A DNA stretch of 64,000 nucleotides from an uncultured Muribaculaceae bacterium (GTDB lineage Bacteria > Bacteroidota > Bacteroidia > Bacteroidales > Muribaculaceae), in NCBI GenBank assembly GCA_905233915.1, contig CAJOFM010000001.1, positions 457,492-521,491 of the forward strand, read 5' to 3'. Of this stretch, positions 19,325 through 63,018 are shown one piece after another. Made by a program: the position numbers and the translations under genes. The notes below the pieces were generated by a model. That model ran no database searches. It saw only the letters and a list, made by a program, of their open reading frames with translations, and was not told the DNA's origin. Within the stretch, counting starts at the first letter, position 1. Each line of letters starts with the position of its first letter.

Positions 19325-19345
19325 GAACTCTAAACTCTAAACTAT
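19325..19345 (-). repeat. Heptamer array between Sua5-like and thioredoxin genes
   Basis: Three 7-bp units read on the minus (sense) strand as ATAGTTT, AGAGTTT and AGAGTTC, directly before the thioredoxin lipoprotein start. A looser TAGAAATAATAG tract precedes them, and TAG recurs with a 7-bp period. Confidence 0.55.
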
Positions 19346-19355
19346 TATTTCTAAC

Positions 19356-19961
19356 TCACACAACCAGTTTCCCCTTGCCCAAACGGGTGATTTCGGGCTC
19401 GCCACCCGTGCAGTCCACGACAGTCGAAGGCATGAGTTGGCCGCGCCCCGAGTCGATAACGATGTCAACTTTGGACTCAAAGGCCTCGGCCATCAGTCCG
19501 GGCTCGCAACGGTAATCCTCGTCATCACCGGGCACCGAGGTGGTCAGGATGGGGCCTCCCAGAGTGCGGACAATGGCTAGCGCTACCTCGTTGTCGGGAA
19601 CGCGGATGCCCACGGTGCGGCGGCCCTTGAAGGCTTTGGGCAGCTTGGATAGGGCTGGGAAGATGAAGGTGAACGGGCCAGGCAGGTTGGCCTTCATCAT
19701 GCGGAACTGCGTGTTGTCAAACTTGGCATACTGGGCCACCGTTGAGATGTCGTCGCAGATGATGGACAGGTTGGTCTTGGCCGACTTCATCTCCTTAATG
19801 GAGCAGATGCGCTCGATGGCTTGGTTGTTAAGCGCGTCGCAGCCCAGCGCATACACGGTGTCGGTGGGATAGATGATGAGACCACCATCCTTGAGCGTCT
19901 CAACGACCTTGTCAATGTGGCGCTGATTGATGTTGTTTTCTAAAATTTCGAGAATTTCCAT
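19356..19961 (-). CDS. Sua5/YciO/YrdC family protein, probable threonylcarbamoyl-AMP synthase
   Basis: A 201-residue YrdC-fold protein. The family makes threonylcarbamoyl-AMP from threonine, bicarbonate and ATP for the t6A modification at position 37 of tRNAs that read ANN codons. Family signatures are the start GGLIIYPTDTVYALGCDA, the KSAKTNLSIICDDI segment (KxR/K-type ATP site) and RRTVGIRVPDN. Length fits the short YrdC/YciO type without the extra Sua5 domain, so whether it is TsaC itself or the YciO paralogue is open. I take ATG 19961 (MEILEILENN) as start; an upstream in-frame start would overlap the gap after the B3/4 gene with no family match. It probably forms a transcription unit with the B3/4 gene. 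Confidence 0.85.
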   Translation of the reverse strand: MEILEILENNINQRHIDKVVETLKDGGLIIYPTDTVYALGCDALNNQAIERICSIKEMKSAKTNLSIICDDISTVAQYAKFDNTQFRMMKANLPGPFTFIFPALSKLPKAFKGRRTVGIRVPDNEVALAIVRTLGGPILTTSVPGDDEDYRCEPGLMAEAFESKVDIVIDSGRGQLMPSTVVDCTGGEPEITRLGKGKLVV

Positions 19962-19980
19962 ACTGTTTATATAGTCGTTG

Positions 19981-20655
19981 TTATTGTCTTGGATTATAGA
20001 TGGCCGTTTCAACGCTGGTAGCGTGGGCATATTTCCTCAACAGGTGGGCCATCCAGTCAACGGCTTGCTCGAGTGGCATTTCGGGAGCAAAGGCGTTGAT
20101 GTTGATTTGGGCATTGACAGTCTGCTCAGTGAACTTGGTGCGTTCCTCATCGCTGGTTGGAGTGGCGATGGGACCCACGGCGTCGCGATAAACCGGCATG
20201 CCCTCAATGTTGAGCACGCCACGCCCGATGCCGTTGTACACGTCGTCGGCAGTGCCTACGCTCATCGTCAAGGTGTCACCCTCGATGCGGTCTCCATCAA
20301 GTCCACTGATGGCATATCCGCTCTTGATGGATACCAGGTTGACCACGTCGATAAGCGTTGTCAGCCGGTAGATGCCCAGTCCGCGGATGATGCGTCGGCA
20401 CAGGGCTTCACTGGACACGCGGTAACGGCTTGGGTCTTTTCCCAAGGCTTTGTACAAGTGGCGGGTGGCGGCGATAGCAGGACGCTGGTTGATTTGCAAC
20501 AACTCGTATTGTTGGGTGATTTCCCTTGCTGCGCCCTCAATCTCGGCCCACAGTTCATCGCACGTCGGCTCGTTCACCACTAGGGCATTAATCAGGCCAA
20601 TGCGCACCTCGGGACATGCTTCCTGTATCCTGTTATCTATCTTGATATTGATCAT
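19981..20655 (-). CDS. B3/B4 tRNA-binding domain protein
   Basis: A 224-residue protein that resembles the B3/B4 editing domain of phenylalanyl-tRNA synthetase beta subunit as a free-standing unit. It contains the family pattern of an N-terminal strand-helix part (CPEVRIGLINALVVN) and a later ALGKDPSRYRVSSEALCRRI segment that I recognise from B3/4-domain proteins. Free-standing members have been proposed to edit or bind mischarged tRNA, but this is not settled. It is followed by the Sua5-like gene 19 bp downstream, so both may act on tRNA. A perfect promoter precedes it at 20684-20715. Confidence 0.8.
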   Translation of the reverse strand: MINIKIDNRIQEACPEVRIGLINALVVNEPTCDELWAEIEGAAREITQQYELLQINQRPAIAATRHLYKALGKDPSRYRVSSEALCRRIIRGLGIYRLTTLIDVVNLVSIKSGYAISGLDGDRIEGDTLTMSVGTADDVYNGIGRGVLNIEGMPVYRDAVGPIATPTSDEERTKFTEQTVNAQININAFAPEMPLEQAVDWMAHLLRKYAHATSVETAIYNPRQ

Positions 20656-20683
20656 TGCTATCTGTCAACACATTTTAAATGTG

Positions 20684-20715
20684 CAAAGTTACTTCAATAT
20701 ATAATAATTGCCAAA
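20684..20715 (-). promoter_or_regulatory. Promoter of the B3/4-Sua5-like unit
   Basis: On the minus strand: TTTG (20715-20712), 20 nt, TAACTTTG (20691-20684). It is divergent from the valS promoter about 35 bp away. Confidence 0.72.
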
Positions 20716-20750
20716 TTTATTTGATAAATCCACCAAATAGGTTTCAGTGT

Positions 20751-20781
20751 TTTGCCGTTTTATGGTTTTTTCTTACCTTTG
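20751..20781 (+). promoter_or_regulatory. Promoter of valS
   Basis: TTTG (20751-20754), 19 nt, TACCTTTG (20774-20781), an exact consensus match. The transcript should begin near 20787, so ValS must start at ATG 20821 and not at an in-frame TTG at 20752, which overlaps the -33 box. Confidence 0.78.
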
Positions 20782-20820
20782 CCGTTTGAACAAAAAAGAA
20801 ACTTATCAAAAATAATTAAA

Positions 20821-24016: not shown

Positions 24017-24052
24017 AAATCACCAGGCCGTTTAGGGCTTGGTGATTTTCAT
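24017..24052. terminator. Bidirectional terminator overlapping the U32 3' codons
   Basis: Inverted repeat AAATCACCAGGCC (24017-24029) with GGCTTGGTGATTT (24036-24048), one G-T pair and a 6-nt loop, followed by TCATTTC. The right arm lies inside the last codons and stop of the U32 gene on the opposite strand. Confidence 0.7.
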
Positions 24053-25873
24053 TTCGCACCTGTTGCAATCGCAGTTGACGCGCAGCAACGTGTTTCCCGT
24101 GCGCAGGTATAAATCCCGTGGCAGGGCATTGCCGTTCTTGCCTTTCAGGCAGGCGCCCAACTGCCGGCGGATGCAGTAGCGCGTGTGCATCAACGGAGTG
24201 CTGGTATTGGCAGGCATGCCCGTTTCAAGGGCGGGTGTGATTTCTTTCACCCCATGCTCCAGATAGACCTCGCGGGACAGGTGGTTTGCCACGTTGTCGG
24301 CAGGAACGAGCGTTGTGGTGGGATAGGGGACAGACTTGTCTTCGGCCCTGCGGCTGTCCACACGCTGTGTGATGGCTTGGGCACGGTCCAGCATCTCAAT
24401 GGTGTCCCGGCGCAGCTGGGCGAGTTGTGAGGCAGGGATAAAGGTGTCTCCTGCCACTTGGGCGTTGCGCAGGCGGTAGATGGTGCCACCCAGTTTCCCC
24501 AACTCGGCGATTTGGCGGTCGGTTTGTGGTTTAGCGGCCGTTTGCATGTCACATTCTATCGAGTGTGTCACGCGGTTGCCCCGCTCGTCGTTGAGCGTGA
24601 GAGCCAGCATGCCGCCGGTGTGGCGCAACTCAGCATCCACAGCGATAGTACGGGTGGCCGACGGCTTGGCCAACAGATCATTGAAAGCCTTGTCGGCGGT
24701 GCGGTAGATGCGGGTGCCGCGGGTGATGTTGGCGGGTTCGCGCAGCAGCAGAGTCCCGTCGCCCATGACGCGGTTGACCCTTGCGCCCGAGAATTGCCCA
24801 TCCCTGTCGGTGAAGCTCAGTCCGTCACCATTGGACAATGTGATGTGGGTGTCAATCTTGAGTGTGTTACCATTGCAGCGCACGGCTTTGCCTAAGTATT
24901 CGCCTTGCGACTTGGGCGTGTCGATTGAGGCCATCAAGGTGCCATCGGCTGGTCGTCGCTCGTCAAGGAAATAATGGGTGAAACCACGGTTGAAACTGCG
25001 CTCGATAGCCGGCTGGAATGTCAATTCGACAGTGCCTTGGGAGGCGCGGCGGTAGCGGTCAGGGTAGCGGCCGATGACCTTGTCGATGGCGCGGCGGTAA
25101 TAGGCCACCACGTTTTTCACATAGCCTATATCTTTCAGGCGACCTTCAATCTTGAAGGAAGAGACGCCGGCGGCCATCATCTGTTCAAGCCTGTCGTGCT
25201 GGGCGAGGTCACGCAGCGAGAGCAAGTGTTTGCCCTCGACGAGAATCCGTCCCTTGCCGTCAACCAGGTCGTAAGGCAGGCGGCACAACTGGGCGCATTC
25301 TCCACGGTTGGCACTGCGGCCCTTAAGCACCTGACTGACAGCACAGCGGCCACTGTAGCTCACGCACAGGGCACCGTGCACAAAGGCTTCGAGTGGCACC
25401 GTGGTCGCTTGACGAATGTCCTTGATTTCTTCAAGCGTGAGTTCGCGCGCCATCACCAGTTGAGAGAATCCCAATGCCTCGAGGAATCGGGCTTTCTCGG
25501 GTGTGCGCAGGTCGCACTGGGTGCTGGCATGCAGCACGATGGGTGGCAGGTCAAGCCTGAGCAGTCCCAGGTCCTGAACGATAAGTGCATCCACACCGAT
25601 GCTGTACAGGTCATGAATCAAGTGCTCTACTTCTGCCAGCTCGTTGTCATAGACCAGCGTGTTGACTGTCGCATAGATTTTTGCCCCATAGCGGTGGGCA
25701 TGATTGCAGGCGCGCCGCACGTCATCCAGGCTGTTGGTGGCCTCGGCTCGTGCTCCATGATGCGATGCCCCCATATAGACCGCATCGGCACCATGGTCGA
25801 TGGCGGCGATGGCGATGTCGGCATCCCTTGCGGGTGCCAGCAGTTCTATGTCAACAGGCTGTTTGAGCATCAA
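24032..25873 (-). CDS. U32-family protein (putative RNA hydroxylation factor, annotated as peptidase)
   Basis: A 613-residue member of the U32 'collagenase-like peptidase' family. Well-studied members (RlhA, TrhP/TrhO-related) are not peptidases but take part in hydroxylation of 23S rRNA or tRNA and carry an iron-sulfur cluster. The N-terminal TIM-barrel part has GADAVYMGASHHGARAEA and VDALIVQDLGLL. The core signature is EAFVHGALCVSYSGRCAVSQ, followed by NRGECAQLCRLPYDL, with four cysteines suited to a metal cluster. The middle is a U32-associated domain, and the end carries more cysteines (RQLGACLKGK, RVNCDCNRCEMK). It overlaps the upstream amidase gene by 4 bp. The exact RNA target is unknown. 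Confidence 0.88.
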   Translation of the reverse strand: MMLKQPVDIELLAPARDADIAIAAIDHGADAVYMGASHHGARAEATNSLDDVRRACNHAHRYGAKIYATVNTLVYDNELAEVEHLIHDLYSIGVDALIVQDLGLLRLDLPPIVLHASTQCDLRTPEKARFLEALGFSQLVMARELTLEEIKDIRQATTVPLEAFVHGALCVSYSGRCAVSQVLKGRSANRGECAQLCRLPYDLVDGKGRILVEGKHLLSLRDLAQHDRLEQMMAAGVSSFKIEGRLKDIGYVKNVVAYYRRAIDKVIGRYPDRYRRASQGTVELTFQPAIERSFNRGFTHYFLDERRPADGTLMASIDTPKSQGEYLGKAVRCNGNTLKIDTHITLSNGDGLSFTDRDGQFSGARVNRVMGDGTLLLREPANITRGTRIYRTADKAFNDLLAKPSATRTIAVDAELRHTGGMLALTLNDERGNRVTHSIECDMQTAAKPQTDRQIAELGKLGGTIYRLRNAQVAGDTFIPASQLAQLRRDTIEMLDRAQAITQRVDSRRAEDKSVPYPTTTLVPADNVANHLSREVYLEHGVKEITPALETGMPANTSTPLMHTRYCIRRQLGACLKGKNGNALPRDLYLRTGNTLLRVNCDCNRCEMKITKP

Positions 25874-26670
25874 ATGTTGAGGGTAAACGAGTCGGCATCA
25901 CGCCAGGCCGGGAATTTCTCCCGGAACTGTGCCAGTTGGGCAGGGGAGAGGTCGGCGGTAATGACGGGGCTGGTCATGCGTTGGGCGATGACCTTGCCCT
26001 TGAAGTCGATGACGAGCGATGATCCCTCGGGATATTCCACTCCTGCGGGGTCGGTGCCACAACGGTTCACGCCACACACGTAGCACTCGTTCTCCATGGC
26101 GCGGGCGGCCAGCAGGGTGCGCCACACTTTCTCACGCGACTTGGGCCAGTTGGCAATCACAACCAGCAAGTCGTAATTGTTGTTCACGTTGCGGCAGAAG
26201 ACAGGGAAGCGCAAGTCGTAGCAAACAACAAACTTGATGTTGAATCCCCTGAAACGCACGATGGGGGAGGCTGTCAATCCGCGGTTAAAGACCTTGTCCT
26301 CGCCACCGAATGAGAACAGGTGACGCTTGTCGTAATAGGTCTCGTCACCGTTGGGTTCGATAAAGAAAGCGCGGTTATAGAGTTGGGCAGCCGTGTTGGC
26401 CAGGAAGCTGCCGATGATGCCCACATGGTACTGCGCGGCAAGTTTGCGCAGGGTGTGCAGCGTGTCACCACTGTTCCACTCGGCTACAGCGGCCGCCTGC
26501 TCACGGTCACCGGTCATGAACCCTGTCGTGAACAATTCGGGCAGGATGACCAGATCGGTGTCATCGGGCATATTGCGCAGGTTGCGCTCCAATTGTTTGA
26601 AGTTGGCGTCGCGGTCGCCCCAGACGATATCATCCTCGATGAGCGTGACGCGCAGGTTGCGTGAAATCAT
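25870..26670 (-). CDS. Carbon-nitrogen hydrolase, omega-amidase type
   Basis: A 266-residue nitrilase-superfamily enzyme. The Glu-Lys-Cys triad is visible: Glu in LVILPELFTTGF, Lys in YDKRHLFSFGGED, Cys in FVVCYDLRFPVF. The overall pattern resembles YafV/omega-amidases, which hydrolyse alpha-ketoglutaramate and alpha-ketosuccinamate, by-products of glutamine and asparagine transamination. Length fits. It overlaps the following U32 gene by 4 bp (ATGA), showing translational coupling. It is preceded by the longest heptamer array of the window. Confidence 0.9.
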   Translation of the reverse strand: MISRNLRVTLIEDDIVWGDRDANFKQLERNLRNMPDDTDLVILPELFTTGFMTGDREQAAAVAEWNSGDTLHTLRKLAAQYHVGIIGSFLANTAAQLYNRAFFIEPNGDETYYDKRHLFSFGGEDKVFNRGLTASPIVRFRGFNIKFVVCYDLRFPVFCRNVNNNYDLLVVIANWPKSREKVWRTLLAARAMENECYVCGVNRCGTDPAGVEYPEGSSLVIDFKGKVIAQRMTSPVITADLSPAQLAQFREKFPAWRDADSFTLNI

Positions 26671-26693
26671 CTTATTCAGTTAAATCTAATAAA

Positions 26694-26749
26694 CCTAAAG
26701 CCTAAAGCCTAATGCCTAAAGCCTAAAGCCTAATGCCTAATGCCTAAAC
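26694..26749 (-). repeat. Eight-unit heptamer array before the omega-amidase
   Basis: Eight consecutive 7-bp units on the plus strand: CCTAAAG (twice), CCTAATG, CCTAAAG (twice), CCTAATG (twice), CCTAAAC. On the sense (minus) strand every unit has the form nnnTAGG. The array runs from the stop codon of the acyltransferase to 23 bp before the amidase ATG. Confidence 0.9.
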
Positions 26750-27294
26750 TACTCCAACCCCGTCACGAACTTCTCGGGATAGCGACCGTGGAAGGGCTGG
26801 TAGTATTGCTTGATGCGCAGCAGGTCGGCATCGGGGTCGTCGCTCAGCTCCATCACCTTGTCGATGCACACCACGCGGTCCTTGTAGTCAAAGTAGGCCA
26901 GTACCAACGGCACCTGGGCATCGCGGGCCATGAAGATGGCGCCCTTGTGCCAATTGGGGTTGGCGCTGCGGGTGCCTTCGGGCGTGACGCCGATGGCCAG
27001 CTTGGGCGTGGTGTTGTAGGCCTCGACAATCGATTGCGTGAGATTGCCGTGCTGGCGGCGGTTAACGGGGATGCCTCCCAGGCCTTTCAGCATGGGCCCC
27101 AGTGGGAAGAAGAACCAAGTGTCTTTCATCAGGAACCCGGCCTTCAGACCCACCGAGTGAATTGCCAATTCTCCCAGAATGAAATCCCAGTTGCTGGTGT
27201 GGGGCGCAACGACGATGATGCACTTGTCGGGCACCTTAAGGTTGACCTTAAAAGTCCAACCAGCCTTCTTTAATATCCAACCAGAGAGATTCAT
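26749..27294 (-). CDS. 1-acylglycerol-3-phosphate acyltransferase-like protein
   Basis: A 181-residue PlsC-superfamily acyltransferase. The catalytic HX4D motif is VAPHTSNWDFILGE and the second block is IGVTPEGTRSANP. Members move an acyl chain from acyl-ACP or acyl-CoA onto a lysophospholipid or related acceptor at the inner membrane. The protein is shorter than classical PlsC (about 240 residues) and lacks a clear N-terminal membrane helix, so the substrate may differ. It ends inside the border of the downstream heptamer array. Confidence 0.85.
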   Translation of the reverse strand: MNLSGWILKKAGWTFKVNLKVPDKCIIVVAPHTSNWDFILGELAIHSVGLKAGFLMKDTWFFFPLGPMLKGLGGIPVNRRQHGNLTQSIVEAYNTTPKLAIGVTPEGTRSANPNWHKGAIFMARDAQVPLVLAYFDYKDRVVCIDKVMELSDDPDADLLRIKQYYQPFHGRYPEKFVTGLE

Positions 27295-27299
27295 GCTGT

Positions 27300-27334
27300 T
27301 TCAGTTGTCAGTTTTCAGTTTTCAGTTGTCAGTA
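27300..27334 (-). repeat. Five-unit heptamer array, TGA class
   Basis: Five 7-bp units, on the sense (minus) strand AACTGAA or AACTGAC with one TACTGAC, ending 5 bp before the acyltransferase ATG. Each unit has TGA. The same words recur before dnaE (42624-42660). Confidence 0.85.
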
Positions 27335-27352
27335 ATGACTGAAGACAAAAAA

Positions 27353-27685
27353 TTATTTTTTCGAGGGCATGAGCTCGTTCATGCGCTTGGCGATATTGTT
27401 CACCTCGGCGCGGAAGTACTCACTCAGTTCTTTCTCGCACTGCTTGAAGAAAGCGCGACGTGCCTTGTTATATTCCTTGCGGTTAGCAAAATCTTTCACC
27501 TTCTTGCCAAACCTGTTGCTCACGCGGTTGATGGCTTCTTGCTGCAGCAGGGCAGTGTCGATGATGATGCTGTCCCACTCCTCGCGCTTGTTCTCGCCAA
27601 AAGCGGATTCTGCAAAAATGCACTCGCCTGCGATGTCGCCACAGGCATTCATGATAGCTTTCTTAATCTGACGTTTATTTGCCAT
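27353..27685 (-). CDS. Conserved hypothetical protein
   Basis: A 110-residue, highly charged protein with no signal peptide and no membrane helix, predicted mostly helical. Lys/Arg-rich helices alternate with Glu-rich ones (KKVKDFANRKEYNKARRAF, CEKELSEYFRAEVNNIAK). I do not recognise the family. It is the first gene of a minus-strand run (unknown protein, acyltransferase, amidase, U32) whose members are linked by heptamer arrays or overlaps. Its own upstream region is AT-rich and lacks an exact promoter match. Confidence 0.6.
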   Translation of the reverse strand: MANKRQIKKAIMNACGDIAGECIFAESAFGENKREEWDSIIIDTALLQQEAINRVSNRFGKKVKDFANRKEYNKARRAFFKQCEKELSEYFRAEVNNIAKRMNELMPSKK

Positions 27686-27833
27686 AATAGTAATAATGAT
27701 ATTAAAGTAAATGTATCAATGCGCTAAAGTACAAAAAAACTCCCATTTCATGGCCAGATTTTCGGCAAAAAATACCGAAAAAAGGCAAAAACAAATCTTT
27801 TTGTCGTTTTTTGAAAAAAAAGTGCTCAAAAAA

Positions 27834-27864
27834 TTTGCCAGTTTCAAAAATGGCAGTAATTTTG
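27834..27864 (+). promoter_or_regulatory. Promoter of the tRNA-Glu pair
   Basis: TTTG (27834-27837), 19 nt, TAATTTTG (27857-27864), placed 15 bp before the mature tRNA start. Confidence 0.78.
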
Positions 27865-27878
27865 CAACGCTTTTGAAA

Positions 27879-27951
27879 GGAGATATCGTCTAGTGGTCTA
27901 GGACGCCGCCCTCTCACGGCGGAAACCAGGGTTCGAGTCCCTGTTTCTCTA
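27879..27951 (+). tRNA. tRNA-Glu (anticodon CTC), copy 1
   Basis: A 73-nt cloverleaf: D-arm GTCTAGTGGTCTAGGAC, anticodon stem CCGCC/GGCGG with loop CTCTCAC (anticodon CTC, reads GAG), and T-arm CAGGG-TTCGAGT-CCCTG. It aligns throughout with bacterial tRNA-Glu. The acceptor stem GGAGATA/TTTCTCT has a 6:67 T-T mismatch and a 1:72 G-T pair. CCA is not encoded (CTA follows). Confidence 0.93.
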
Positions 27952-27958
27952 CTAGCAG

Positions 27959-27985
27959 AGCCTTCACCTAGCGCGAGGGCTTTTT
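27959..27985 (+). terminator. Weak terminator-like hairpin between the tRNA copies
   Basis: AGCCTTCAC (27959-27967) can pair loosely with GCGAGGGCT (27973-27981), followed by TTTT. It is a degenerate copy of the hairpin after the second tRNA, and part of the 115-bp duplicated unit. Confidence 0.5.
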
Positions 27986-27993
27986 AAATCGAC

Positions 27994-28066
27994 GGAGATA
28001 TCGTCTAGTGGTCTAGGACGCCGCCCTCTCACGGCGGAAACCAGGGTTCGAGTCCCTGTTTCTCTA
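27994..28066 (+). tRNA. tRNA-Glu (anticodon CTC), copy 2
   Basis: Identical over 73 nt to the copy 115 bp upstream, including the acceptor-stem mismatch. Here CCA follows the discriminator base (28067-28069), by chance or as a relic. The two genes arose by tandem duplication and share the promoter at 27834-27864. Confidence 0.93.
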
Positions 28067-28073
28067 CCAACGG

Positions 28074-28106
28074 AGCCTTCACTTAACGGTGAGGGCTTTT
28101 TCTTTT
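28074..28106 (+). terminator. Terminator of the tRNA unit
   Basis: AGCCTTCAC (28074-28082) pairs with GTGAGGGCT (28089-28097), with a 6-nt loop, followed by TTTTTCTTTTT. Confidence 0.8.
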
Positions 28107-28114
28107 TATTATGC

Positions 28115-28151
28115 CAAAAATAAGGCGCAACCACATCATGGCTGCGCCTTA
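28115..28151 (-). terminator. Terminator of the tricorn-type protease gene
   Basis: Inverted repeat TAAGGCGCA (28121-28129) and TGCGCCTTA (28143-28151) with a 13-nt loop. On the minus strand the hairpin is followed by TTTTT, so it ends the minus-strand transcript. Confidence 0.7.
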
Positions 28152-28175
28152 ATTGTTTTATATTTAACTCATCCC

Positions 28176-31100
28176 TTAATTCACGCCCAGATCTTTCAGG
28201 GTGCGGGGAGCGGGAGTCTTGGGCATGTGCTTGCGGTCCTTGAGCAGGTCGAGGATGACCTCGATGGCCTTGTCAAGCTGCTGGTCGATGCCGTTGAATT
28301 CCATCACGGGATCGTTGTCAACGATGATGTCGGGGTCAACACCGTGGTTCTCGACAATCCAGTTGCCGTGGGTGTCGTAGTTGGTGAAGAATGGAACGCG
28401 GATGTCGGTGCCGTCCATGTAGGGCAGCGAACCGCTGATGCCGACGATACCACCCCATGAGCGTGTACCAATCACGGGACCAATCTTGTTCTCCTTGAAG
28501 CTCCAGGGGAACAGGTCGCCATCGCTGGCACTGTACTTGTTCACCAGCAGCACCTTGGGGCCGACGAGCGTGCGCTCGGGCGTGGTGCCGTTGTGGTTGC
28601 TGCCACGGAACATGGTCAGGCGGTAAGGCTCGCGCAGCAGGCGCTCGATCACCATCGGCGAGATGTTGCCGCCACCGTTGCCGCGGTCGTCAACGATAAG
28701 GGCCTCCTTGTCGGTCTGGGCAAAGAAGTAGCGTGAGAACTCACGCAATCCCTCGGGACCCATGTCGGGGATATAGATGTAACCCACACGTCCACCGGTC
28801 TTCTCGCTCACGTAGTCGATGTTGTGCTGTACCCACTCGTGGTGGTACAGGGAATACTCGTTCTGGATGGGCTTGACAACGACCTTGCGGTTGCCGTTCA
28901 GCGTCAGTTCGGTCATCACACCTGCCTTGTCGCGCAGCAAGGTGTAGAAGTTGTTCACACCCTGGGCGCTCACACCGTCAACGGCAGTGATGACATCACC
29001 CTCCTTGACGTTCATGCCCGGCTCGAGCAGCGGCGAGCGCAGTTCCTCGCGGTCGGGAGCACCACGCAGGATTTTCTTGATCTTGTAGCCGTTGGCCACC
29101 TGTTCCACCTCGGCACCCAGCATACCGATGTTGTGCTGGTCGGCCTGGATGTGGTCACCGCCGTCAACATAGGCGTGTCCCACTGCCAGCTCACTGATCA
29201 TGCCGCCGATGACGTAGGTAAGGTCCAGGCGGTTCTTGACGTAGGGCAGCAGGGCGGCATACTTGTCGTGCATCGCCTGCCAGTCCACGCCGTGCATGTT
29301 CTCGAGATAGAAGCCGTCACGATAGGCGCGCCAGGCCTCATTGAAAATCTGGTTCCACTCCTGGTCATAGTTGACCGTGGCAACCATGTCGTCGAGGTTG
29401 ACGGCCTCGCTCAGGTCGGCCTTGCGGGGTGCCAGAGGAGCGACATAGACGTTGTCACCCTTCATGAACAAGGCGTTCTTGCCGTTAGCCGCAGGCATCA
29501 TAAAGGCGCGCTCGGCAACAACCTCGTCCTTCTGCTCGGCAAAGTCATACACGCGCACGCCGCCACGGCCGCTGCTGTACCACAGGTGGCTGCCGTCGCA
29601 CACGAAGTTGCCGTAGCTGCCCGTGCCGATGGGCACCCTGACGATGCGGTCGGCAATGCCGTCGATGTCGATGCGGATGGCGTTGGGATCGGGCTGGGCT
29701 TTACCCTTGGCATTCTTCTTGTCCTTGGGGGCATCCTTGGGAGCGTCCTTGGGCTTCTCACCACCGGCGTTTACCTGGTCATCCTTGGGCAGGAAGGGCG
29801 AGGGGGTGTCCTTGGCGAGCATCACGAGGTAGATACCCTCCATGTCGCGGTAGGCAAAGTTCCACTCGATGCTGCTGTAGATGGGATTGAAGTCGCGTGC
29901 CGATGCGAAAATCAGGTACTTGCCGTCGCTGCTGAAAACTGGCGAGTTGCTGTCATACCAGCGGTCGGTCACGGGATATTCCTTGCGCTCGGCGATGTTG
30001 TACAGGTAAACCACGCCATATTCATTGACGCCCTGGCGATAATAGGTCAGCCACTTGCCGTCGGGTGAGAAACTCGGGGTGGGGATTTCGCCCATCTCGT
30101 CGGTCAGCAGGGTCTGCTTGGCGAGTGTCTTGACGTTGAGCAGCACCATGCGGTTCTTGCGGTCGGTATAGACGATCTTGCTGCCGTCGGGGCTCCACTC
30201 AAAGTCGCGGATGTAGGTGTCGTTGTCTTTGGTTAACTGAACGGCCTGGTCGCTGCCCACGGGGCGCATCCAGATCTCGGTCTCGCCGGTCTGGTCGCTG
30301 ATGTAGGCGATGTTCTTGCCGTCGGGGCTCCACTGGGCGTTGCGCTCGTGCACGCCAGGGGTGTGGGTGATGTTGCGCGTCACGCCGTGCTTGGCGGGCA
30401 CGTCAAACACCTCACCGCGGGCACTGATGGCGATGCGGCTGCCGTCAGGGGCCAGGCTGCCGCCACGCAGGTCGTCCTTTACCTTGCGCTGCTCCTCACG
30501 GGCGAAGTTGTTCTCGCTGTTCAGGTAAACGGTGATTTTCTCGCTACGCTTGGTAGCGGGGTCGAGCACATACAGGTAACCGCCGTTCTCAAACACGATC
30601 TTGCCGCCGCCGCAGTTGGCAAACTTCACGTCATACTCGGTGAAGTCGGTCACCTTCTGGGTCGAGCCGGTGCGGGTGTTATAGACAAAGATGTTCATGC
30701 GGTTGTCGCGGTCGCTCATGAAGTAAATCTCGTCGCCAATCCACATCGGGTCGATGTCCTGGGCGATGTTGTTGGTGATGTTGGTCACCGTCTTGGCCTG
30801 GGTGTCATAGATCCAGATGTCGTCGGCCATACCGCCCTTGTAGTACTTCCAGGTGCGGAACTCACGGAAGACGCGGTTATAGGCCATCTTGGTGCCGTCG
30901 CTGTTGTAGGAGCAGAAACCGCCCTCGGGCAGGGGCAACTGCTGCGACATGCCGCCGTCGATGGGAGCACACCACAGCTTGCCGTCAAAGCTGTCGCTGA
31001 TGCGGTTACGGTAGATGACGCCACGGCCGTCGGGGGTCCACGTCATGGTAATGTTGTTGGGACCCATGCGGTCGCCCCAATCATCACGGGGATTGCTTGC

Positions 31101-31412: not shown

Positions 31413-31450
31413 CTTTTCTTCTTAATTTAAAATATATTGATGTTGATTAA

Positions 31451-31478
31451 CTTCTAACTCCTAACTCCTAACTCCTAA
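31451..31478 (-). repeat. Four-unit heptamer array before the tricorn-type gene
   Basis: Units on the sense (minus) strand: TTAGGAG three times, then TTAGAAG. The first TAG is the stop codon (31477-31475) of the upstream gene. Confidence 0.85.
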
Positions 31479-33646: not shown

Positions 33647-33651
33647 TTCTG

Positions 33652-33683
33652 CAAAGGTAGTGCAACCTGAATACAGTGGCAAG
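33652..33683 (-). promoter_or_regulatory. Promoter of the glycoside-hydrolase-like gene
   Basis: On the minus strand: CTTG (33683-33680), 20 nt, TACCTTTG (33659-33652). The -7 box ends only 5 bp before the first possible start codon (33646). Confidence 0.6.
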
Positions 33684-34151
33684 AAAAAATCAATTTTTCT
33701 TGACTTTCAACAAGCGCATCCGCGTTCCTCTTCAAACAACAGGAACAACAATTAACAATTCAAACAACCCTATAGTTAAGCATCCGCATTCCTTGTTATA
33801 AAAAACAACTTAAACAACTCAAACAATTGGGCTGTCGCATCCTCCCCCAAAAAACAACTGATTTATCTGATTTTTCTGAAGGCTGACGCATCCTTTTTTC
33901 TGTTGGCGAACCTTTACCAATTATACGGATTAAACGAATTATTGCGTAGTGCAGCTCTTTAACCTTTATTCTCTAAACTCTAAACTGCGGGCGCAAGCCC
34001 GCATAAGATGGCATCCGCGCAACAAAAAAACTGTGCTTAACGCACGGGAAATTAAACAAATTATTATTTTAAAATTTTAATTTAATTTGAATAATTTCCC
34101 GTGCGCAGCACGGTAAGAAAAGTTCTAGGCGCTAGGCCGTGGATGCAGTTG
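33684..34151. repeat. Gene-free stretch with degenerate repeats and palindromes
   Basis: No credible gene. GCATCC recurs at 33716, 33780, 33837, 33888 and 34011, with AAACAAC-rich tracts of roughly 9-bp period between several copies. Two TTTAGAG heptamers (minus-strand reading) lie at 33971-33984. TGCGGGC-GCAA-GCCCGCA (33986-34003) is a perfect hairpin with a GNRA-type loop. A long imperfect palindrome spans 34031-34113, with a perfect 14-bp core CGCACGGGAAATTA (34041-34054) and its complement at 34092-34105. I cannot assign it to a known element. Confidence 0.6.
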
Positions 34152-35987: not shown

Positions 35988-35998
35988 ATCATAAATGT

Positions 35999-36634
35999 TT
36001 ATTGGTTTAATGTTTCATAGATGGTGTCAAACATGTGACGGAAGGCTTTTTCGTCGGCAAGGGTTTGGCGGAAGGCTTCCAGATTGCGGGCATTGTCACT
36101 CTCGGGTATCCACAGCTTCAGGTAGCCGCCATAGTCATATTTCTCGCGCATGTGCTCCATCAGGCGGCGGTATTGCCCCTCGCGGTCGAGCCCGGGCTCA
36201 TGCTTCATGCCATATTGCAGGGCACGGCGCACGATGGTCTCGCCGTCGATGATGCGGTCGGCCTCGGCAACGATGCGGCCGTAGATGGTGCGGGGTTCGT
36301 GGTCGCTCGAGGCGCGGTGGTCCTCGGCGACATCGGCAATGGTGCCAATTTCCTCCTCGCTGAACCACTGGCGCAGGCGCTCGTCGTCGCGCACGATGCG
36401 GGCGCTGTCGGTGTGGTGATGTTCTCGCCCGTTCACCAGTCCCAGGTCATGATAGGCTGCGGCAACCAGCAGGAGGCAACGGTCAGCCTCGGGATAATAC
36501 TCGGCGAGTTTCAAGGCCTGGGAAATGACCGTCTCGACATGGTCGCGGCCATGCCCGGCGTCAAAACCATCATAGCGGGGAACAATCTCCCGCTCGACAA
36601 ATGCCTTAATCTCCTCAAATTCCCTCCTCATCAT
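35999..36634 (-). CDS. HD-domain phosphohydrolase
   Basis: A 211-residue cytoplasmic HD-superfamily protein. The metal-binding His/His-Asp pattern is GHGRDHVETV, then AAAYHDLGLVNGREHHHTDSA (the HD pair), with a later VAEDHRASSD. It resembles the small HD hydrolases (YedJ-like) that act on nucleotides or related phosphates; the substrate is not known. ATG 36634 and 36631 are both possible. It lies 35 bp after ribBA, with a heptamer array in the gap. Confidence 0.85.
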   Translation of the reverse strand: MMRREFEEIKAFVEREIVPRYDGFDAGHGRDHVETVISQALKLAEYYPEADRCLLLVAAAYHDLGLVNGREHHHTDSARIVRDDERLRQWFSEEEIGTIADVAEDHRASSDHEPRTIYGRIVAEADRIIDGETIVRRALQYGMKHEPGLDREGQYRRLMEHMREKYDYGGYLKLWIPESDNARNLEAFRQTLADEKAFRHMFDTIYETLNQ

Positions 36635-36647
36635 AATTCCCTAAAAA

Positions 36648-36669
36648 CCTAACACCTAAAGCCTAACAC

Positions 36670-36675
<6 letters not shown>
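36648..36675 (-). repeat. Four-unit heptamer array between ribBA and the HD gene
   Basis: Sense-strand (minus) units GATTAGG, TGTTAGG, CTTTAGG, TGTTAGG. The TAG of the first unit is the ribBA stop codon (36672-36670). Confidence 0.85.
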
Positions 36676-37884
<1,209 letters not shown>

Positions 37885-37913
37885 TTTATTTTCTTTTTTT
37901 CAAAATATTCACC

Positions 37914-37955
37914 CCCCTAACTTCTAACTCCTAACTCCTAACTTCTAACTCCTAA
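37914..37955 (-). repeat. Six-unit heptamer array between the LptF/G gene and ribBA
   Basis: Six 7-bp units; on the sense (minus) strand TTAGGAG or TTAGAAG, the last TTAGGGG. The first TAG is the stop codon (37954-37952) of the permease gene. Confidence 0.9.
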
Positions 37956-39972: not shown

Positions 39973-42513
39973 GTGAACGCAATTTGGCGACATATCGTGT
40001 GCTTATTGGTCCTTTTTGCCACCGTGATGACCGCGGCAGGGCAGCAGGTGCCCATGACTCAGATCACGGGACTTGTGAGGGACTCACTTACCCGTGAGGG
40101 CGTCCCCTATGCCTCGATTTCGCTTGTCGGAACCAGCGAGGGCACCCTTGCCACCGACCGTGGCGGCTTCACCATCAATTCACGTGCCCGTTTTTCCAAA
40201 TTGCGTGTCACCGCCATGGGCTATCAACCCAAGGAGGTTGAGGTCAAGGCAGGGCAGGGGAGTGTCGTGCTCATCGACCTGGTGGCCACGGGCGTTGAAC
40301 TGGGCGAGGTGGTTGTGCACAAGGGTAAGGAAAAGTACAGCAAGAAGAACAATCCCGCTGTCGAGATGATCAAGAAGCTGCGTGCGCGGCGTGACGATAA
40401 CGACCCGCGCCGCATGCCGCACTATGGCTACACCCAGTATGAGCGCATGATGCTGGGATTTGCCAATCTGGATGACTTGATAAAAAAGCCTGAGGAGCAA
40501 CGGTGGATTGATGAGTATGCCGACACGTCATTACTTACTGGGAAGCGCATCCTGCCCATCTCCATCAAGGAGACCGTGGCACGCGACTACTACAGCCGTG
40601 ACCCTGAGGCCCACAAGCACCTGATTTTGGGTTCCAAGAGTGCGGGCATTGACGAGCGCATAGACCAGGAAAACGTCAAGAAGGTGCTTGATGATTTCAT
40701 GGGTGAGATAGACATCTTCCAGAACGACGTGACATTGCTCACTAACCGGTTTGTCAGCCCCTTGTCGCGCATCGCGGTCGATTTCTACAAGTTCTACCTT
40801 AATGATACGGTGATGGTCGATGGGGAGCGCTGTGCGGTGCTGAGTTTTGTGCCGTTCACGCCCCAGACCTTCGGGTTCCTGGGCCGCCTCTATGTCTCGC
40901 TCGAGGACACGACCCTGTTTATCAAGCGGGTATCGATGGGAGTGCCCTATGACATCAACCTCAACTATGTGGAGCGCATGAGCATCGTGCAGGACTTTGA
41001 GCGTGCGCCCAATGGCTCTCGACTCAAGATGCGGGATAACGTGGAGGTGAGTTTTAAGCTCATGCCTGGTGTGCCAGAGGCCTTTGCCCGGCGTGAAACC
41101 ACTTACCGTGACCACAACTTTGAGCGTCCCGAGGGCGGCGTGTTCAACTTCAAGGGTGAGCAATCAACCCAGGGTGGGGCTGCCTATATGCCCGACGAGT
41201 TCTGGCAGGAATACCGCCCAGCCCAGGTGCGCACGACCACAGCGACGATGCGCGGCCTGATGCAGCGCCTGCGGGGTTCCAAGTTGTTCTATTGGGCTGA
41301 GCAGGTGGTGATTGTCATGGTCAACGGTTATCTCCCAACGGCACGGGTCAGCAAGTTTGACATCGGCCCGTTGAACACCACCATCAGCGGTAACTCCCTG
41401 GAGGGACTGCGCTTGCGCTTGGGTGGCATGACTAATGTCAACCTGAGCCGCCACTTGTTTGCCCGCGGCTATGTGGCCTATGGTTTCCGAGACGAGAAAT
41501 TCAAGTATATGGGTTCGCTGGAATACTCTTTCATCCCCAAGAAATCCTTGGACCAGGAGTTTCCCATCCACAGCCTGCGCCTCACCCACCGCTATGATGT
41601 TGACAAGCTGGCGCAGCACTATCTATATACCAACCAGGACAACATGTTCCTCACCCTGCGCCGACACAAGGACGTGAGGATGCAATACCTGCGCACCACG
41701 CGTCTCGAGTACCGCCATGAGTGGTACAACCACTTCTTCATTGCCCTGGGTATTGAGCACAACATCCACGAGGCCACCCAGTATGTGCCGTTTGTTTATG
41801 CCGACGGCACTGCACGTCAGCGTTATACCCAGGCGGGTTTCACCGCCCAGCTGCGTTTTGCTCCGGGCGAGACCTTCTACCAGACGCGTTCCTACCGCAT
41901 TCCCATCAACATGGACGCTCCTATCATGACCTTGACCCAGACCTATATGCCCAAGGGCTTCATGGGCAGCCTGCATGAGATCAATAAGACCGAGTTGGGG
42001 TTACAGAAGCGGTTCTGGTTCTCGGCCTTCGGCTATGCCGACGTCATCCTGAGGGGCGAAAAAGTGTGGAGCCAGGTGGCTTATCCCGACCTGCTCATGC
42101 CAAACGTCAACCTGTCTTATACCATCCAGCCCGAGAGCTACGCCTTGATGAAACCCATGGAGTTCATCAACGATCAGGCCCTCTCGTGGGACCTCACCTA
42201 TTGGGGCAACGGCATCCTGATGAACCGACTGCCGCTGATCAAAAAACTGCGCCTGCGTGAGGTGCTCTCCCTGCGAGGCATCTGGGGCAGCCTGAGCGAC
42301 AAGAACAATCCTGCCGCCGACGATGCCGTCTTTCTCTTTCCCGCCGACGCGCTGTGCCAACCCATGGGCGATAAACCTTATATGGAAGCCGGAGTCGGCC
42401 TCGACAACATCTTTACAATCCTTAGAGTGGACTACGTGTGGCGACTTACCTACCGTGATCACGCAGGCACCGACCGCCATGGCGTCCGCATCCAGCTACA
42501 TTTTAATTTTTAG
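39973..42513 (+). CDS. DUF5686 / carboxypeptidase-regulatory-like outer-membrane protein
   Basis: A protein of about 846 residues of the DUF5686 type common in Bacteroidetes. After a hydrophobic export signal (HIVCLLVLFATVMTAAGQQ) comes a carboxypeptidase-D-like beta-sandwich (TQITGLVRDSLTREGVPYAS, TDRGGFTINSRA, LRVTAMGYQPKEV). The long remainder consists of beta-strands typical of an outer-membrane barrel, ending HGVRIQLHFNF. The function is unknown; the N-terminal module is shared with TonB-dependent receptors. The GTG at 39973 is my best start, but GTG 39997 is also possible; an upstream ATG at 39898 is rejected because it lies before the -7 box. The gene ends in TAGGCGTTAGG, two heptamers like the arrays elsewhere. 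Confidence 0.8.
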   Translation: MNAIWRHIVCLLVLFATVMTAAGQQVPMTQITGLVRDSLTREGVPYASISLVGTSEGTLATDRGGFTINSRARFSKLRVTAMGYQPKEVEVKAGQGSVVLIDLVATGVELGEVVVHKGKEKYSKKNNPAVEMIKKLRARRDDNDPRRMPHYGYTQYERMMLGFANLDDLIKKPEEQRWIDEYADTSLLTGKRILPISIKETVARDYYSRDPEAHKHLILGSKSAGIDERIDQENVKKVLDDFMGEIDIFQNDVTLLTNRFVSPLSRIAVDFYKFYLNDTVMVDGERCAVLSFVPFTPQTFGFLGRLYVSLEDTTLFIKRVSMGVPYDINLNYVERMSIVQDFERAPNGSRLKMRDNVEVSFKLMPGVPEAFARRETTYRDHNFERPEGGVFNFKGEQSTQGGAAYMPDEFWQEYRPAQVRTTTATMRGLMQRLRGSKLFYWAEQVVIVMVNGYLPTARVSKFDIGPLNTTISGNSLEGLRLRLGGMTNVNLSRHLFARGYVAYGFRDEKFKYMGSLEYSFIPKKSLDQEFPIHSLRLTHRYDVDKLAQHYLYTNQDNMFLTLRRHKDVRMQYLRTTRLEYRHEWYNHFFIALGIEHNIHEATQYVPFVYADGTARQRYTQAGFTAQLRFAPGETFYQTRSYRIPINMDAPIMTLTQTYMPKGFMGSLHEINKTELGLQKRFWFSAFGYADVILRGEKVWSQVAYPDLLMPNVNLSYTIQPESYALMKPMEFINDQALSWDLTYWGNGILMNRLPLIKKLRLREVLSLRGIWGSLSDKNNPAADDAVFLFPADALCQPMGDKPYMEAGVGLDNIFTILRVDYVWRLTYRDHAGTDRHGVRIQLHFNF

Positions 42514-42524
42514 GCGTTAGGCAA
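42511..42524 (+). repeat. Two heptamers at the DUF5686 stop codon
   Basis: TAGGCGT and TAGGCAA, the first starting with the stop codon itself. A minimal form of the TAG-class array. Confidence 0.55.
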
Positions 42525-42623: not shown

Positions 42624-42660
42624 GCACTGACAACTGAAAACGACAACTGACAACTGAAAA
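42624..42660 (+). repeat. Heptamer array, TGA class, before dnaE
   Basis: Units GCACTGA, CAACTGA, a 6-nt AAACGA, then CAACTGA twice and an A-tract, ending 6 bp before the dnaE ATG. The sequence shares its CAACTGA words with the array before the acyltransferase at 27300-27334. A 7-bp inverted repeat (42557-42563, 42583-42589) lies farther upstream. Confidence 0.8.
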
Positions 42661-60240: not shown

Positions 60241-60292
60241 ATGTTTATCCTACTCTCATGATAGTGAACTTGAAATAACACCAATTCTTTTA

Positions 60293-60327
60293 TTAACTAT
60301 TAACTCTTAACTGTTAACTCATAACCA
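60293..60327 (+). repeat. Five-unit heptamer array, TAA class, before tgt
   Basis: Units TTAACTA, TTAACTC, TTAACTG, TTAACTC, ATAACCA. Each carries TAA. The array lies just upstream of the tgt -7 box (60337-60344), so unlike the others it may be at the promoter rather than in the leader. Confidence 0.85.
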
Positions 60328-61501: not shown

Positions 61502-61511
61502 GTTACTAGGA

Positions 61512-62735
61512 ATGGAAGAAGAACTCAAGAACATAGAGCAGATTGAGAATTCAGAAATCTCAGAGAATTCAGAATTCTCACAAAACGTGGAGGTTTCGGA
61601 AGTCACTGAGAACGCTACTGTTTCCCTGCCCGAGCCTGATACACGCAAGCGCTACCCGTGGTATTACGTGAAGCGCTTCGATCGCTACATCATCAAGAAA
61701 TTCCTGGGTACATTCTTCTTTGCCATTCTGTTGCTGTTTGCCATCGTGGTGATGTTCGACATCAATGAGAAGCTTGATGCCGTGCTCACAGCACCCTGGA
61801 AGGCGACCGTCTTCCAGTATTTCATGAACTTCCTGCCCTTTGTTCTCAGCCAGTTCAGCCCGTTGTTCACCTTTATTGCGGTGATTTTCTTTACCTCGCG
61901 TCTTGCCGACCGCAGTGAGATCATCGCTATGCTTTCCAATGGCATCAGTTTCTACCGTTTGACCATTCCTTACTTGTTCTCGGCGGCGGTCATCGCCCTG
62001 GGCAGTTACTTGCTGGCGGCATACATCATTCCGCCTGCCAATGTCGAGCGTATTGCCTATACCAACAAGTGGGTCAAGAACAAGGAAGTGATCTATGGTG
62101 ATAACATTCAGCTTCAGGTCAAGCCTGGAGTGATGGCCTATATGTCACGTTATGACAATACCACTCGCAGTGGGTTCCGTTTCTCCCTTGAAGAGTTTGA
62201 TGGCAATACCCTCAAGTCCCGTCTCACGGCCGAGACCATCAAGTATGACTCGGTGGGCCTGTGGACCGTGCGTAATTATGTCATCCGTGATTTCAAGGGT
62301 CTGAAAGAGACAATGACCAAGGGCAATGTGATGGATACTCTGCTCAACATCGACCCGCGCGATTTCCTTATCTCTAAGAATGATGAACAGACCATGACCT
62401 CACCCGAGCTTAAGGAGTACATCAACAAGCAAAAAGCTCGAGGGGTCGCCAATATCAAGAATTTCGAAATTGAATACGAGCGGCGCATTGCCATGACTGC
62501 TGCCGCCTTTATCCTCACTATTATAGGCTTGTCACTCTCGTCACGCAAGGTGAGAGGTGGCATCGGCCTGAACATCGGTCTGGGCCTATTGCTCAGTTTC
62601 TCTTATATCTTGTTCATGACGGTAACCTCGACGTTTGCCGTCTCGGGTTATACCAGTCCCCGCGTGGCGATGTGGATTCCCAACTTTGTGTATATCATTA
62701 TCGCAGCCGTGCTCTACTATCGGGCATCACGGTAG
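61512..62735 (+). CDS. LptF/LptG (YjgP/YjgQ) family permease
   Basis: A 407-residue LPS-exporter permease with the usual six membrane helices: FLGTFFFAILLLFAIVVMFD, VLSQFSPLFTFIAVIFFTS, LFSAAVIALGSYLLAAYII before the periplasmic jellyroll, and MTAAAFILTIIGLSLSSRK, LGLLLSFSYILFMTV, NFVYIIIAAVLYY after it. The first 45 residues are an extra acidic, Ser/Asn/Glu-rich cytoplasmic tail containing a perfect in-frame hexapeptide repeat (ENSEIS, ENSEFS). It probably shares a transcript with tgt. Together with the long paralogue at 37952 it may supply the LptF-LptG heterodimer; which is which cannot be told. Confidence 0.9.
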   Translation: MEEELKNIEQIENSEISENSEFSQNVEVSEVTENATVSLPEPDTRKRYPWYYVKRFDRYIIKKFLGTFFFAILLLFAIVVMFDINEKLDAVLTAPWKATVFQYFMNFLPFVLSQFSPLFTFIAVIFFTSRLADRSEIIAMLSNGISFYRLTIPYLFSAAVIALGSYLLAAYIIPPANVERIAYTNKWVKNKEVIYGDNIQLQVKPGVMAYMSRYDNTTRSGFRFSLEEFDGNTLKSRLTAETIKYDSVGLWTVRNYVIRDFKGLKETMTKGNVMDTLLNIDPRDFLISKNDEQTMTSPELKEYINKQKARGVANIKNFEIEYERRIAMTAAAFILTIIGLSLSSRKVRGGIGLNIGLGLLLSFSYILFMTVTSTFAVSGYTSPRVAMWIPNFVYIIIAAVLYYRASR

Positions 62736-62810
62736 CCCTTAGTGCTATGTTGGTGGGTTGAAAGCAAAATACGACCCAGGTGCCCTTGTGGTCTATGGGC
62801 AATCTTATCA

Positions 62811-62858
62811 GCAAGCCTTGTGTATCTCATCGTGAGAGCGCAGGGCTTGCGTTTTTTT
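62811..62858 (+). terminator. Terminator of the tgt-lptG-like unit
   Basis: GCAAGCC (62811-62817) pairs with GGCTTGC (62844-62850); the loop contains an inner hairpin TCTCA/TGAGA. Followed by GTTTTTTTT. Confidence 0.75.
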
Positions 62859-62932
62859 TACGTTTTGTTATCTGGGAAGTGCAAAAAAGTTAAAAAAGAA
62901 ATAATTTGTCTGTGATTTAAAATATTTTGCAT

Positions 62933-62973
62933 TATATTTGCAAGTTGATTAGTTGTTAGCGAAAAGCTAACAA
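62933..62973 (+). promoter_or_regulatory. Promoter and leader hairpin of the TlpA-like gene
   Basis: -7 box TATATTTG (62933-62940) without a well-spaced -33 box (a TTTG at 62905 is 24 nt away). Right after the expected transcript start lies the perfect hairpin TTGTTAGC (62953-62960)/GCTAACAA (62966-62973) with loop GAAAA. Confidence 0.55.
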
Positions 62974-62976
62974 TTA

Positions 62977-63018
62977 AAAACTGAAAACAGATAACCGAAA
63001 ACAGGTAACTAAAAACTT
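62977..63018 (+). repeat. Six-unit heptamer array before the TlpA-like gene
   Basis: Units AAAACTG, AAAACAG, ATAACCG, AAAACAG, GTAACTA, AAAACTT. Degenerate but with strict 7-bp period. TGA or TAA occurs four times across the units. It ends 13 bp before the ATG. Confidence 0.75.

What the first reader, a model, noticed from the sequence alone, without database searches (positions are those of the whole stretch)
19325..63018. A family of 7-bp-period intergenic arrays whose units carry stop codons
Around ten arrays (19325, 26694, 27300, 31451, 33971, 36648, 37914, 42511/42624, 60293, 62977) share a 7-bp period but not one sequence. All lie in gaps before genes, mostly between genes on the same strand, and read in the sense direction nearly every unit contains TAG, TGA or TAA. 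Because 7 is 1 modulo 3, any three neighbouring units put a stop in all three frames. This could block ribosomes that read past a stop or re-enter, isolate translation of neighbouring genes, or provide an unstructured leader. I know of no named element with this rule; slippage without function is the main alternative.
Basis: partly seen in the sequence, partly recalled or inferred. Interest (0 to 1): 0.75.

Follow-up and report, generated by a model that had tools for sequence, protein, structure and literature searches.

The report
Heptamer repeats between operon genes
This rumen bacterium has many short 7-letter repeats in the gaps between neighbouring genes; they are real and follow a clear direction rule, but the stop codons in them look like a by-product, and similar repeats are already described in other bacteria.

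Summary
In an 864-kb sample of this uncultured rumen Bacteroidales genome, period-7 tracts number 77 between genes and 3 inside genes, against 1 in a shuffled copy. They sit mainly in promoter-less gaps between co-directional genes.

The stop-codon reading is mostly not supported. Stops are enriched (0.88 of sense units, 0.59 after column permutation) but nearly as much on the antisense strand (0.76-0.79). At stop edges, arrays with a stop on one strand only have it in sense 14 times and in antisense 13 times.

What orders the arrays is polarity: the G/T-rich strand tends to read into the gap from each gene edge (stop edges 90 G/T-rich to 40 A/C-rich, start edges 12 to 71; 216 arrays). Two arrays in one gap usually run G/T then A/C (36, against 3 reversed) and are mostly complementary (26 of 36). 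Sites turn over: 19 of 27 array gaps are array-free in the closest relative sampled.

The same polarity is in print for Xanthomonas and Nostoc heptamers (Rehm 2015), and partly for TAACTGA repeats (MacGregor 2015). So this is a new variant of a known kind; added here is that the rule needs neither quadruplex-forming units nor sense stops.

The parts
19326..19343 (-). short array, sense AGTTTAG x2.6 (G/T-rich), between L-threonylcarbamoyladenylate synthase-like and thioredoxin-like genes; 12 nt after the stop and 4 nt before the start, so an exception to the start-edge rule
26690..26748 (-). array, sense TTAGGC(T/A)T x8.6 (G/T-rich), beginning directly after the stop codon of the 26749-27294 gene
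27301..27333 (-). array, sense ACTGA(C/A)A x4.7 (A/C-rich), 6 nt before the start of the 26749-27294 gene
31448..31478 (-). array, sense TTAGGAG x4.4 (G/T-rich), overlapping and supplying the stop codon of the 31475-33682 gene; 5 of 24 near relatives have any array in this gap
33971..33986 (-). short array, sense AGTTTAG x2.3 (G/T-rich), in a long gap with other repeat modules and a GGCATCCGC motif
36644..36673 (-). array, sense TTAGGTG/TTAGGCT about 4 copies (G/T-rich), overlapping the stop codon of the ribBA-like gene
37916..37955 (-). array, sense TTAGGAG/TTAGAAG x5.7 (G/T-rich), overlapping the stop codon of the 37952-39898 gene
42511..42523 (+). about two TTAGGCG-like units starting at the stop codon of the 39898-42513 gene; too short to count as an array alone
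   Evidence: sequence; not listed
42626..42657 (+). array, ACTGACA/ACTGAAA x4.7 with an indel (A/C-rich), 6 nt before the start of dnaE
60291..60325 (+). array TTAACT(A/C)(T/C)-like x4.7, upstream of a TAACTTTG promoter-like box of the tgt gene
62979..63016 (+). degenerate AACTGAAAACAGAT array (14 bp x2.7, A/C-rich) just before the 63032 gene, downstream of a TATATTTG promoter-like box

Best explanation
These are heptameric intergenic satellites: fast-evolving 7-nt tandem arrays, some of them paired as arms of an inverted repeat, that live mainly in promoter-less gaps of operons. Shown: period 7; near-exclusion from genes; the G/T-rich strand tending to read into the gap from each gene edge; the order G/T-rich then A/C-rich with mostly complementary arms when two arrays share a gap; gain, loss and unit replacement between related species; stop content shared by both strands. 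Inferred: arrays grow by replication slippage in a 7-nt register; in two-armed gaps the arms copy each other by hairpin template switching, which keeps them complementary while the unit changes; arrays persist where they do little harm, that is, not in genes, not between promoter and gene, and without G/U-rich RNA just before a start codon in bacteria that lack Shine-Dalgarno initiation. The two-armed minority should form mRNA hairpins between cistrons and may work like E. coli REP elements, but I found no sign that particular genes need them. The stop codons are a by-product of CTAA/TTAG-like cores.
For: Lag-7 excess and intergenic location. Polarity in own and other genomes, in co-directional, convergent and divergent gaps and in gaps with a single array. 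Few promoter boxes in array gaps and 47 of 52 arrays upstream of the box where there is one. UD order 36 against 3 DU, and U:D complementarity beyond composition and period in 26 of 36 pairs, own 10 of 10; better than swapping arms within a species (10 of 3000 permutations). Two-armed gaps fold better than shuffles, one-armed gaps do not differ from array-free gaps. Turnover at orthologous gaps. Stops not strand-specific.
Against: The start-codon filter does not explain why A/C-rich arrays are scarce just after stops in long gaps (8 of 45), nor the polarity of arrays upstream of promoters. Site persistence is above chance (odds ratio 4.5, p = 0.007), which hints at selection or preferred sites. 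The arm-swap test across all genomes was negative (1407 of 5000), and within G213, L008 and L022 true arms paired no better than swapped ones. Species 'dialects' of units were not significant on mean distance (530 of 2000). No within-species comparison and no RNA data were available; slippage and template switching were not observed.
Confidence: 0.5

Rival explanations
1. Selected intercistronic RNA elements, REP-like: the arrays, alone or as hairpins, sit between stop and start to tune mRNA stability or translation of the flanking cistrons.
For: Operon position and closeness to stop codons; hairpins in two-armed gaps; two adjacent gaps two-armed in both the own genome and G213 with different heptamers; above-chance site persistence. 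E. coli REPs within 15 nt of a stop are reported to stall ribosomes (passages of PMC12306157).
Against: 19 of 27 own array gaps lack an array in the closest relative sampled; about two thirds of array gaps of 45-200 nt are one-armed and unstructured (68 of 97).
Confidence: 0.27
2. Stop-codon insulators, the first reader's idea: stops in three frames catch stray ribosomes between genes.
For: Stops above column-permuted expectation; at start edges, one-strand stops are in sense 24 to 9.
Against: Stops as frequent in antisense; at stop edges 14 to 13; depletion of stop loss on both strands; stop-less arrays placed alike; turnover.
Confidence: 0.08
3. Binding sites of a trans-acting protein or ribosomal component before start codons, as proposed for TAACTGA repeats in Beggiatoaceae.
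For: A/C-rich arrays next to starts resemble the forward TAACTGA sets; conserved cores with variable positions.
Against: Many unrelated unit families in one genome and unit replacement at orthologous gaps do not suit one recognised sequence; only 3 of 216 units equal TAACTGA.
Confidence: 0.08
4. G-quadruplex elements, as proposed for the Xanthomonas and Nostoc heptamers.
For: Same period, gap preference and polarity as in Rehm 2015.
Against: 7 of 216 units contain GGG/CCC; the 143 without GG/CC still show the polarity (p = 1.1e-7).
Confidence: 0.02

Closest known systems
G-rich heptameric repeats of Xanthomonas (GGGAATC) and Nostoc (GGGGA(C/T)T), Rehm et al. 2015, PMC4692102 (abstract, sections 10, 13, 16 and passages read)
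   Same: Heptamers of about four units, intergenic, mostly between aligned ORFs and rare between divergent ones; G-rich strand sense within 50 bp after stops and antisense within 50 bp before starts; pairs in convergent orientation (70 and 75 cases in two genomes); no gene class preferred.
   Different: Here units are many and mostly lack G-tracts. [quoted passage not shown]
TAACTGA direct repeats of marine Beggiatoaceae, some Cyanobacteria and five Bacteroidetes, MacGregor 2015, PMC4679880 (abstract, sections 7, 12, 24 and passages read)
   Same: Period 7, intergenic, mostly forward before start codons; stop content noted; in Flexibacter litoralis 12 of 14 sets forward before starts and one reversed set directly after a stop.
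   Different: One fixed heptamer there and related heptamers rarely repeated; here many units, 3 of 216 equal to TAACTGA, and G/T-rich arrays after stops are as common as A/C-rich ones before starts.
REP/BIME elements of E. coli and similar repetitive extragenic palindromes (passages of PMC12306157 read; otherwise recalled)
   Same: Extragenic, hairpin-forming, often close to a stop codon inside transcription units.
   Different: No fixed palindrome: arms are tandem heptamers, and about two thirds of array gaps of 45-200 nt hold one kind of arm only (68 of 97). The two Y1 transposase loci lack the GGCATCCGC motif; one holds two short period-7 tracts.

Membership tests
Heptameric intergenic repeats (Rehm 2015 type) | 7-nt period, intergenic, between aligned ORFs | tested here: met
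   77 of 80 own tracts intergenic; 62 in co-directional, 10 in convergent, 5 in divergent gaps
Heptameric intergenic repeats (Rehm 2015 type) | G-rich strand sense after stops, antisense before starts | tested here: met
   with G/T-rich in place of G-rich: 90/40 at stop edges, 12/71 at start edges
Heptameric intergenic repeats (Rehm 2015 type) | G-tracts able to form quadruplexes | tested here: not met
   7 of 216 units with GGG/CCC
Heptameric intergenic repeats (Rehm 2015 type) | repeats are transcribed | not testable with these tools
   inferred from the scarcity of promoter boxes in array gaps
TAACTGA repeats (MacGregor 2015) | unit TAACTGA | tested here: not met
   3 of 216 array consensus units equal TAACTGA in any rotation or strand
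TAACTGA repeats (MacGregor 2015) | forward orientation just upstream of start codons | tested here: met
   A/C-rich arrays predominate at start edges, 71 of 83 with a call; the tested units are relatives of TAACTGA, not the same unit
REP elements with RAYT transposase | one conserved palindromic consensus | tested here: not met
   arms are varied tandem heptamers
REP elements with RAYT transposase | REP-flanked Y1 transposase gene | tested here: inconclusive
   two PF01797 genes; no GGCATCCGC in the 3.3-kb loci; one locus has two short period-7 tracts of score 11 and 9, the first inside the transposase frame
Rfam RNA families | match above gathering score | tested here: not met
   only two tRNA matches in the window

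The most novel reading that the evidence does not exclude
A general, sequence-independent rule of bacterial intergenic DNA: heptamer satellites place their G/T-rich strand reading inward from each gene edge, whatever the unit. Seen here in a Bacteroidales genus with units that lack G-tracts and often lack sense stops, and in print for Xanthomonas and Nostoc. Paired arms copy each other through hairpins, so whole arrays change unit while keeping their layout. The cause would be a process at gene edges that has not been described.
Probability: 0.2. Interest if true: 0.72.

Novelty: new variant of a known kind. Interest (0 to 1): 0.46.

Why it matters
Heptamer repeats between bacterial genes have been discussed separately as quadruplexes, as translation signals and as traces of DNA exchange. 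This genus loosens those links: many unit families without G-tracts, and some without sense stops, obey one placement rule. That narrows the search to a general cause (slippage register, hairpin copying, or a constraint at gene edges), and a genus with tens of species offers natural filled and empty sites to test it.

Tried and rejected
Stop-codon insulation: tested by strand, edge, substitutions and stop-less arrays; disfavoured.

Quadruplexes: 7 of 216 units with GGG/CCC. Known RNA family: none but two tRNAs. REP with RAYT: two Y1 genes without GGCATCCGC nearby, one with two short period-7 tracts; not supported, not excluded.

Scars of rearrangement: gene adjacency is not less conserved at array gaps (265 of 406 against 871 of 1547). 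Those counts, and the 75 both / 357 one / 704 none, repeat some gaps many times; one search uses one relative per gap.

Species dialects: exact unit identity is 7.0% within and 2.7% between species, but the label permutation on mean distance is not significant (530 of 2000). I claim only unit replacement at sites.

Hairpin pairing: the first test, swapping arms across all gaps and genomes, was negative (1407 of 5000, 19 pairs). The column-permuted control and the within-species swap (10 of 3000, 28 pairs) were positive, though G213, L008 and L022 alone were not.

Array length between strains of one species could not be compared: one genome per species is held.

Left out of counts: N-run arrays; arrays inside genes in the edge tests; L002 (duplicates G024); the part of L006 that duplicates G213, but not, so the folding test was repeated without it; 3 of 216 arrays with equal G+T and A+C share. 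Some L and G labels may be the same genome.
Full report
Setting. The window lies in a 2.82-Mb, 24-contig genome (G000:C1:457492-521491) whose close relatives are uncultured, mostly rumen, Bacteroidales genomes. Besides the window I read 800 kb of the same genome (C1 1-400000, C2 1-260000, C4 1-140000), 864 kb in all, about 31% of it, and stretches of relatives. Genes were called with my own hexamer scorer, so start codons are approximate.

The observation. Period-7 arrays are at the stated places; a few are short (2.3 and 2.6 copies) and 62977 is degenerate. In the 864 kb, lag 7 gives 77 intergenic and 3 genic segments against 1 in a shuffled copy; among lags 3-24 that are not multiples of 7, lag 9 gives 22 intergenic and the rest 0-3. 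Of 81 segments first listed (one an N run), 62 lay in co-directional, 10 in convergent and 5 in divergent gaps and 4 inside genes. The pattern TTAGGAG x3 (up to 3 mismatches) occurs 177 times in the own genome against 3 for the backward control, and in 26 of 41 genomes of the genus, own included. AACTGAA x3 (up to 2 mismatches) occurs in 29 of 148 genomes of the order, own included. Density per 100 kb is 9.3 in the own sample, 11.2 in genus loci, 3.3 and 2.9 in more distant loci, and 0 in the samples of G012, G171 and G066.

Stop codons. Sense units with a stop: 256 of 292 own, 308 of 351 genus; antisense 223 of 292 and 278 of 351; permuted columns 0.58-0.59; array-free gaps 0.36. Stops are thus enriched, but on both strands. 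G/T-rich arrays at stop edges: sense 365 of 419, antisense 0.94; A/C-rich arrays at start edges: sense 281 of 317, antisense 0.64. Of 216 arrays, 151 consensus units have stops on both strands, 38 only in sense, 22 only in antisense and 5 on neither; at stop edges the one-strand cases are 14 sense to 13 antisense, at start edges 24 to 9. Among units that differ from their consensus by one base, stop loss is below expectation in sense (25 against 47.1) and in antisense (14 against 43.7). The constraint therefore looks to be on a core motif rather than on reading of stops.

The placement rule. Read in the sense of the nearer gene, arrays are G/T-rich (U: AGTTAGG, TTTAGGC, AGTTTAG, CAGTTGT, GGTTAAT) or A/C-rich (D: AACTGAA, CTAAACT, CCTAAAG). 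Nearest edge a stop: 90 U, 40 D; nearest edge a start: 12 U, 71 D. Own genome: 37/15 and 5/19; others: 53/25 and 7/52. Gaps over 110 nt and within 25 nt of an edge: 37/8 and 0/19. Convergent and divergent gaps: 16/3 and 1/12 (all). Without reference to gene direction, the G/T-rich strand tends to read into the gap from either edge. Units without GG/CC obey it (143 arrays, p = 1.1e-7), as do those without a sense stop (27, p = 0.003); the 38 with a stop only in sense do not (2/12 and 1/23, p = 0.54). The window array at 19326 is an exception, G/T-rich and 4 nt from a start. In gaps over 110 nt, 27 of 105 arrays lie within 6 nt of an edge against 18.2 expected, and co-directional ones touch the stop edge 20 times and the start edge 4 times of 78.

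Operon gaps. A TAnnTTTG box (the Bacteroidetes promoter element; recalled) is present in 3% of 38 array gaps of 70-120 nt against 30% of 107 array-free gaps, and in 19% of 21 against 68% of 117 at 120-250 nt. Where a box exists, 47 of 52 arrays lie upstream of it; the 5 in leaders are all A/C-rich.

Paired arms. Neighbouring arrays in one co-directional gap are ordered UD 36 times, UU 10, DD 7 and DU 3. D is complementary to U beyond composition and period in 26 of 36 pairs at p<0.1, own 10 of 10, and more than D from another gap of the same species overall (10 of 3000 permutations, 28 pairs), though not in G213, L008 or L022 taken alone. A cruder swap across all genomes was negative (1407 of 5000). 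After removal of a duplicated stretch, two-armed gaps fold better than shuffles (28 gaps, median z -3.9); one-armed gaps do not differ from array-free ones (33 U-only, -0.9; 35 D-only, -0.9; 90 of 463 array-free gaps, -1.1) (first version). Gaps with one array also show the polarity (38/29 upstream side, 8/26 downstream side, p = 0.002), so hairpins are not the whole story.

Turnover. In the gap at window 31413-31474, 5 of 24 near relatives have an array, none with the window's unit. For 133 own co-directional neighbours with an orthologous pair in the closest genome sampled: both 8, own only 19, other only 9, none 97 (odds ratio 4.5, p = 0.007). None of the 8 shares an identical unit consensus, although one pair differs by one base and another visibly shares TTTAGGC units inside a longer composite. 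Two adjacent gaps at C1:6628-7953 are two-armed in both the own genome and G213 (flanking proteins 96-97% identical) with different heptamers and centres; the next gap is 12 nt in the own genome and holds a two-armed element in G213.

Prior art. Rehm et al. 2015 (PMC4692102; abstract, sections 10, 13, 16 and passages) report heptameric G-rich repeats in Xanthomonas and Nostoc with the same gap preference, polarity and convergent pairs. MacGregor 2015 (PMC4679880; abstract, sections 7, 12, 24 and passages) reports TAACTGA repeats before start codons, notes their stops, and mentions one reversed set directly after a stop. Mrazek 2007 on 7-nt repeats is known here only through these papers. Two searches aimed at heptamer repeats in Bacteroidetes or Bacteroidales returned only MacGregor; of the listings of two broader searches, these two papers were the ones I judged relevant. 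Only open-licence papers are held. Initiation without Shine-Dalgarno sequences in Bacteroidetes is taken from search listings, and stop-proximal REPs from passages of PMC12306157.

Reading. I take these as heptamer satellites of operon gaps. Growth by slippage, copying between hairpin arms, and tolerance only where translation and promoters are not disturbed are inferences. The polarity is shown but not fully explained: a start-codon filter accounts for missing G/T-rich arrays before starts, not for the scarcity of A/C-rich arrays after stops. That gap is the reason for the novel case.

Noticed in passing
own genome C1:6682, C1:7916, C1:286484, C2:256758, C4:119879; window 34009; L137 near 12375; L021 and L022 near 9700-9900: A 9-mer, GGCATCCGC, recurs between intergenic repeat modules across the genus: 21 intergenic copies in the own 864-kb sample, 7 of them directly after a G/T-rich period-7 tract. 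It often forms the loop of two-armed arrays and may mark a joining or copying process.
   Followed up: partly
window 33680-34150; own C1 near 286500-286800: Composite intergenic blocks with 9-bp-period units (AAACAACTT, CTGATTTAT, AATTAAACG) joined by GGCATCCGC or GGCTGACGC; lag 9 is the second commonest intergenic period, 22 segments.
   Followed up: no
G213 (L164-L177), gaps orthologous to own C1 genes 3-5: In G213 two-armed elements at adjacent gaps share a different centre (like AATATTACCTCTTTC...) in place of GGCATCCGC, so centres seem to change between species as units do.
   Followed up: no
window 27879-28101: Two tRNA-Glu (CTC) genes in a 115-bp tandem duplication, 93% matching.
   Followed up: no
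window 24032-39898 against L002-L022, L032, L039, L068: Gene order around the TolB-like/S41 protease gene is poorly kept: mostly only the 31475-33682 / 28176-31412 pair is adjacent in near relatives within 10 kb.
   Followed up: no
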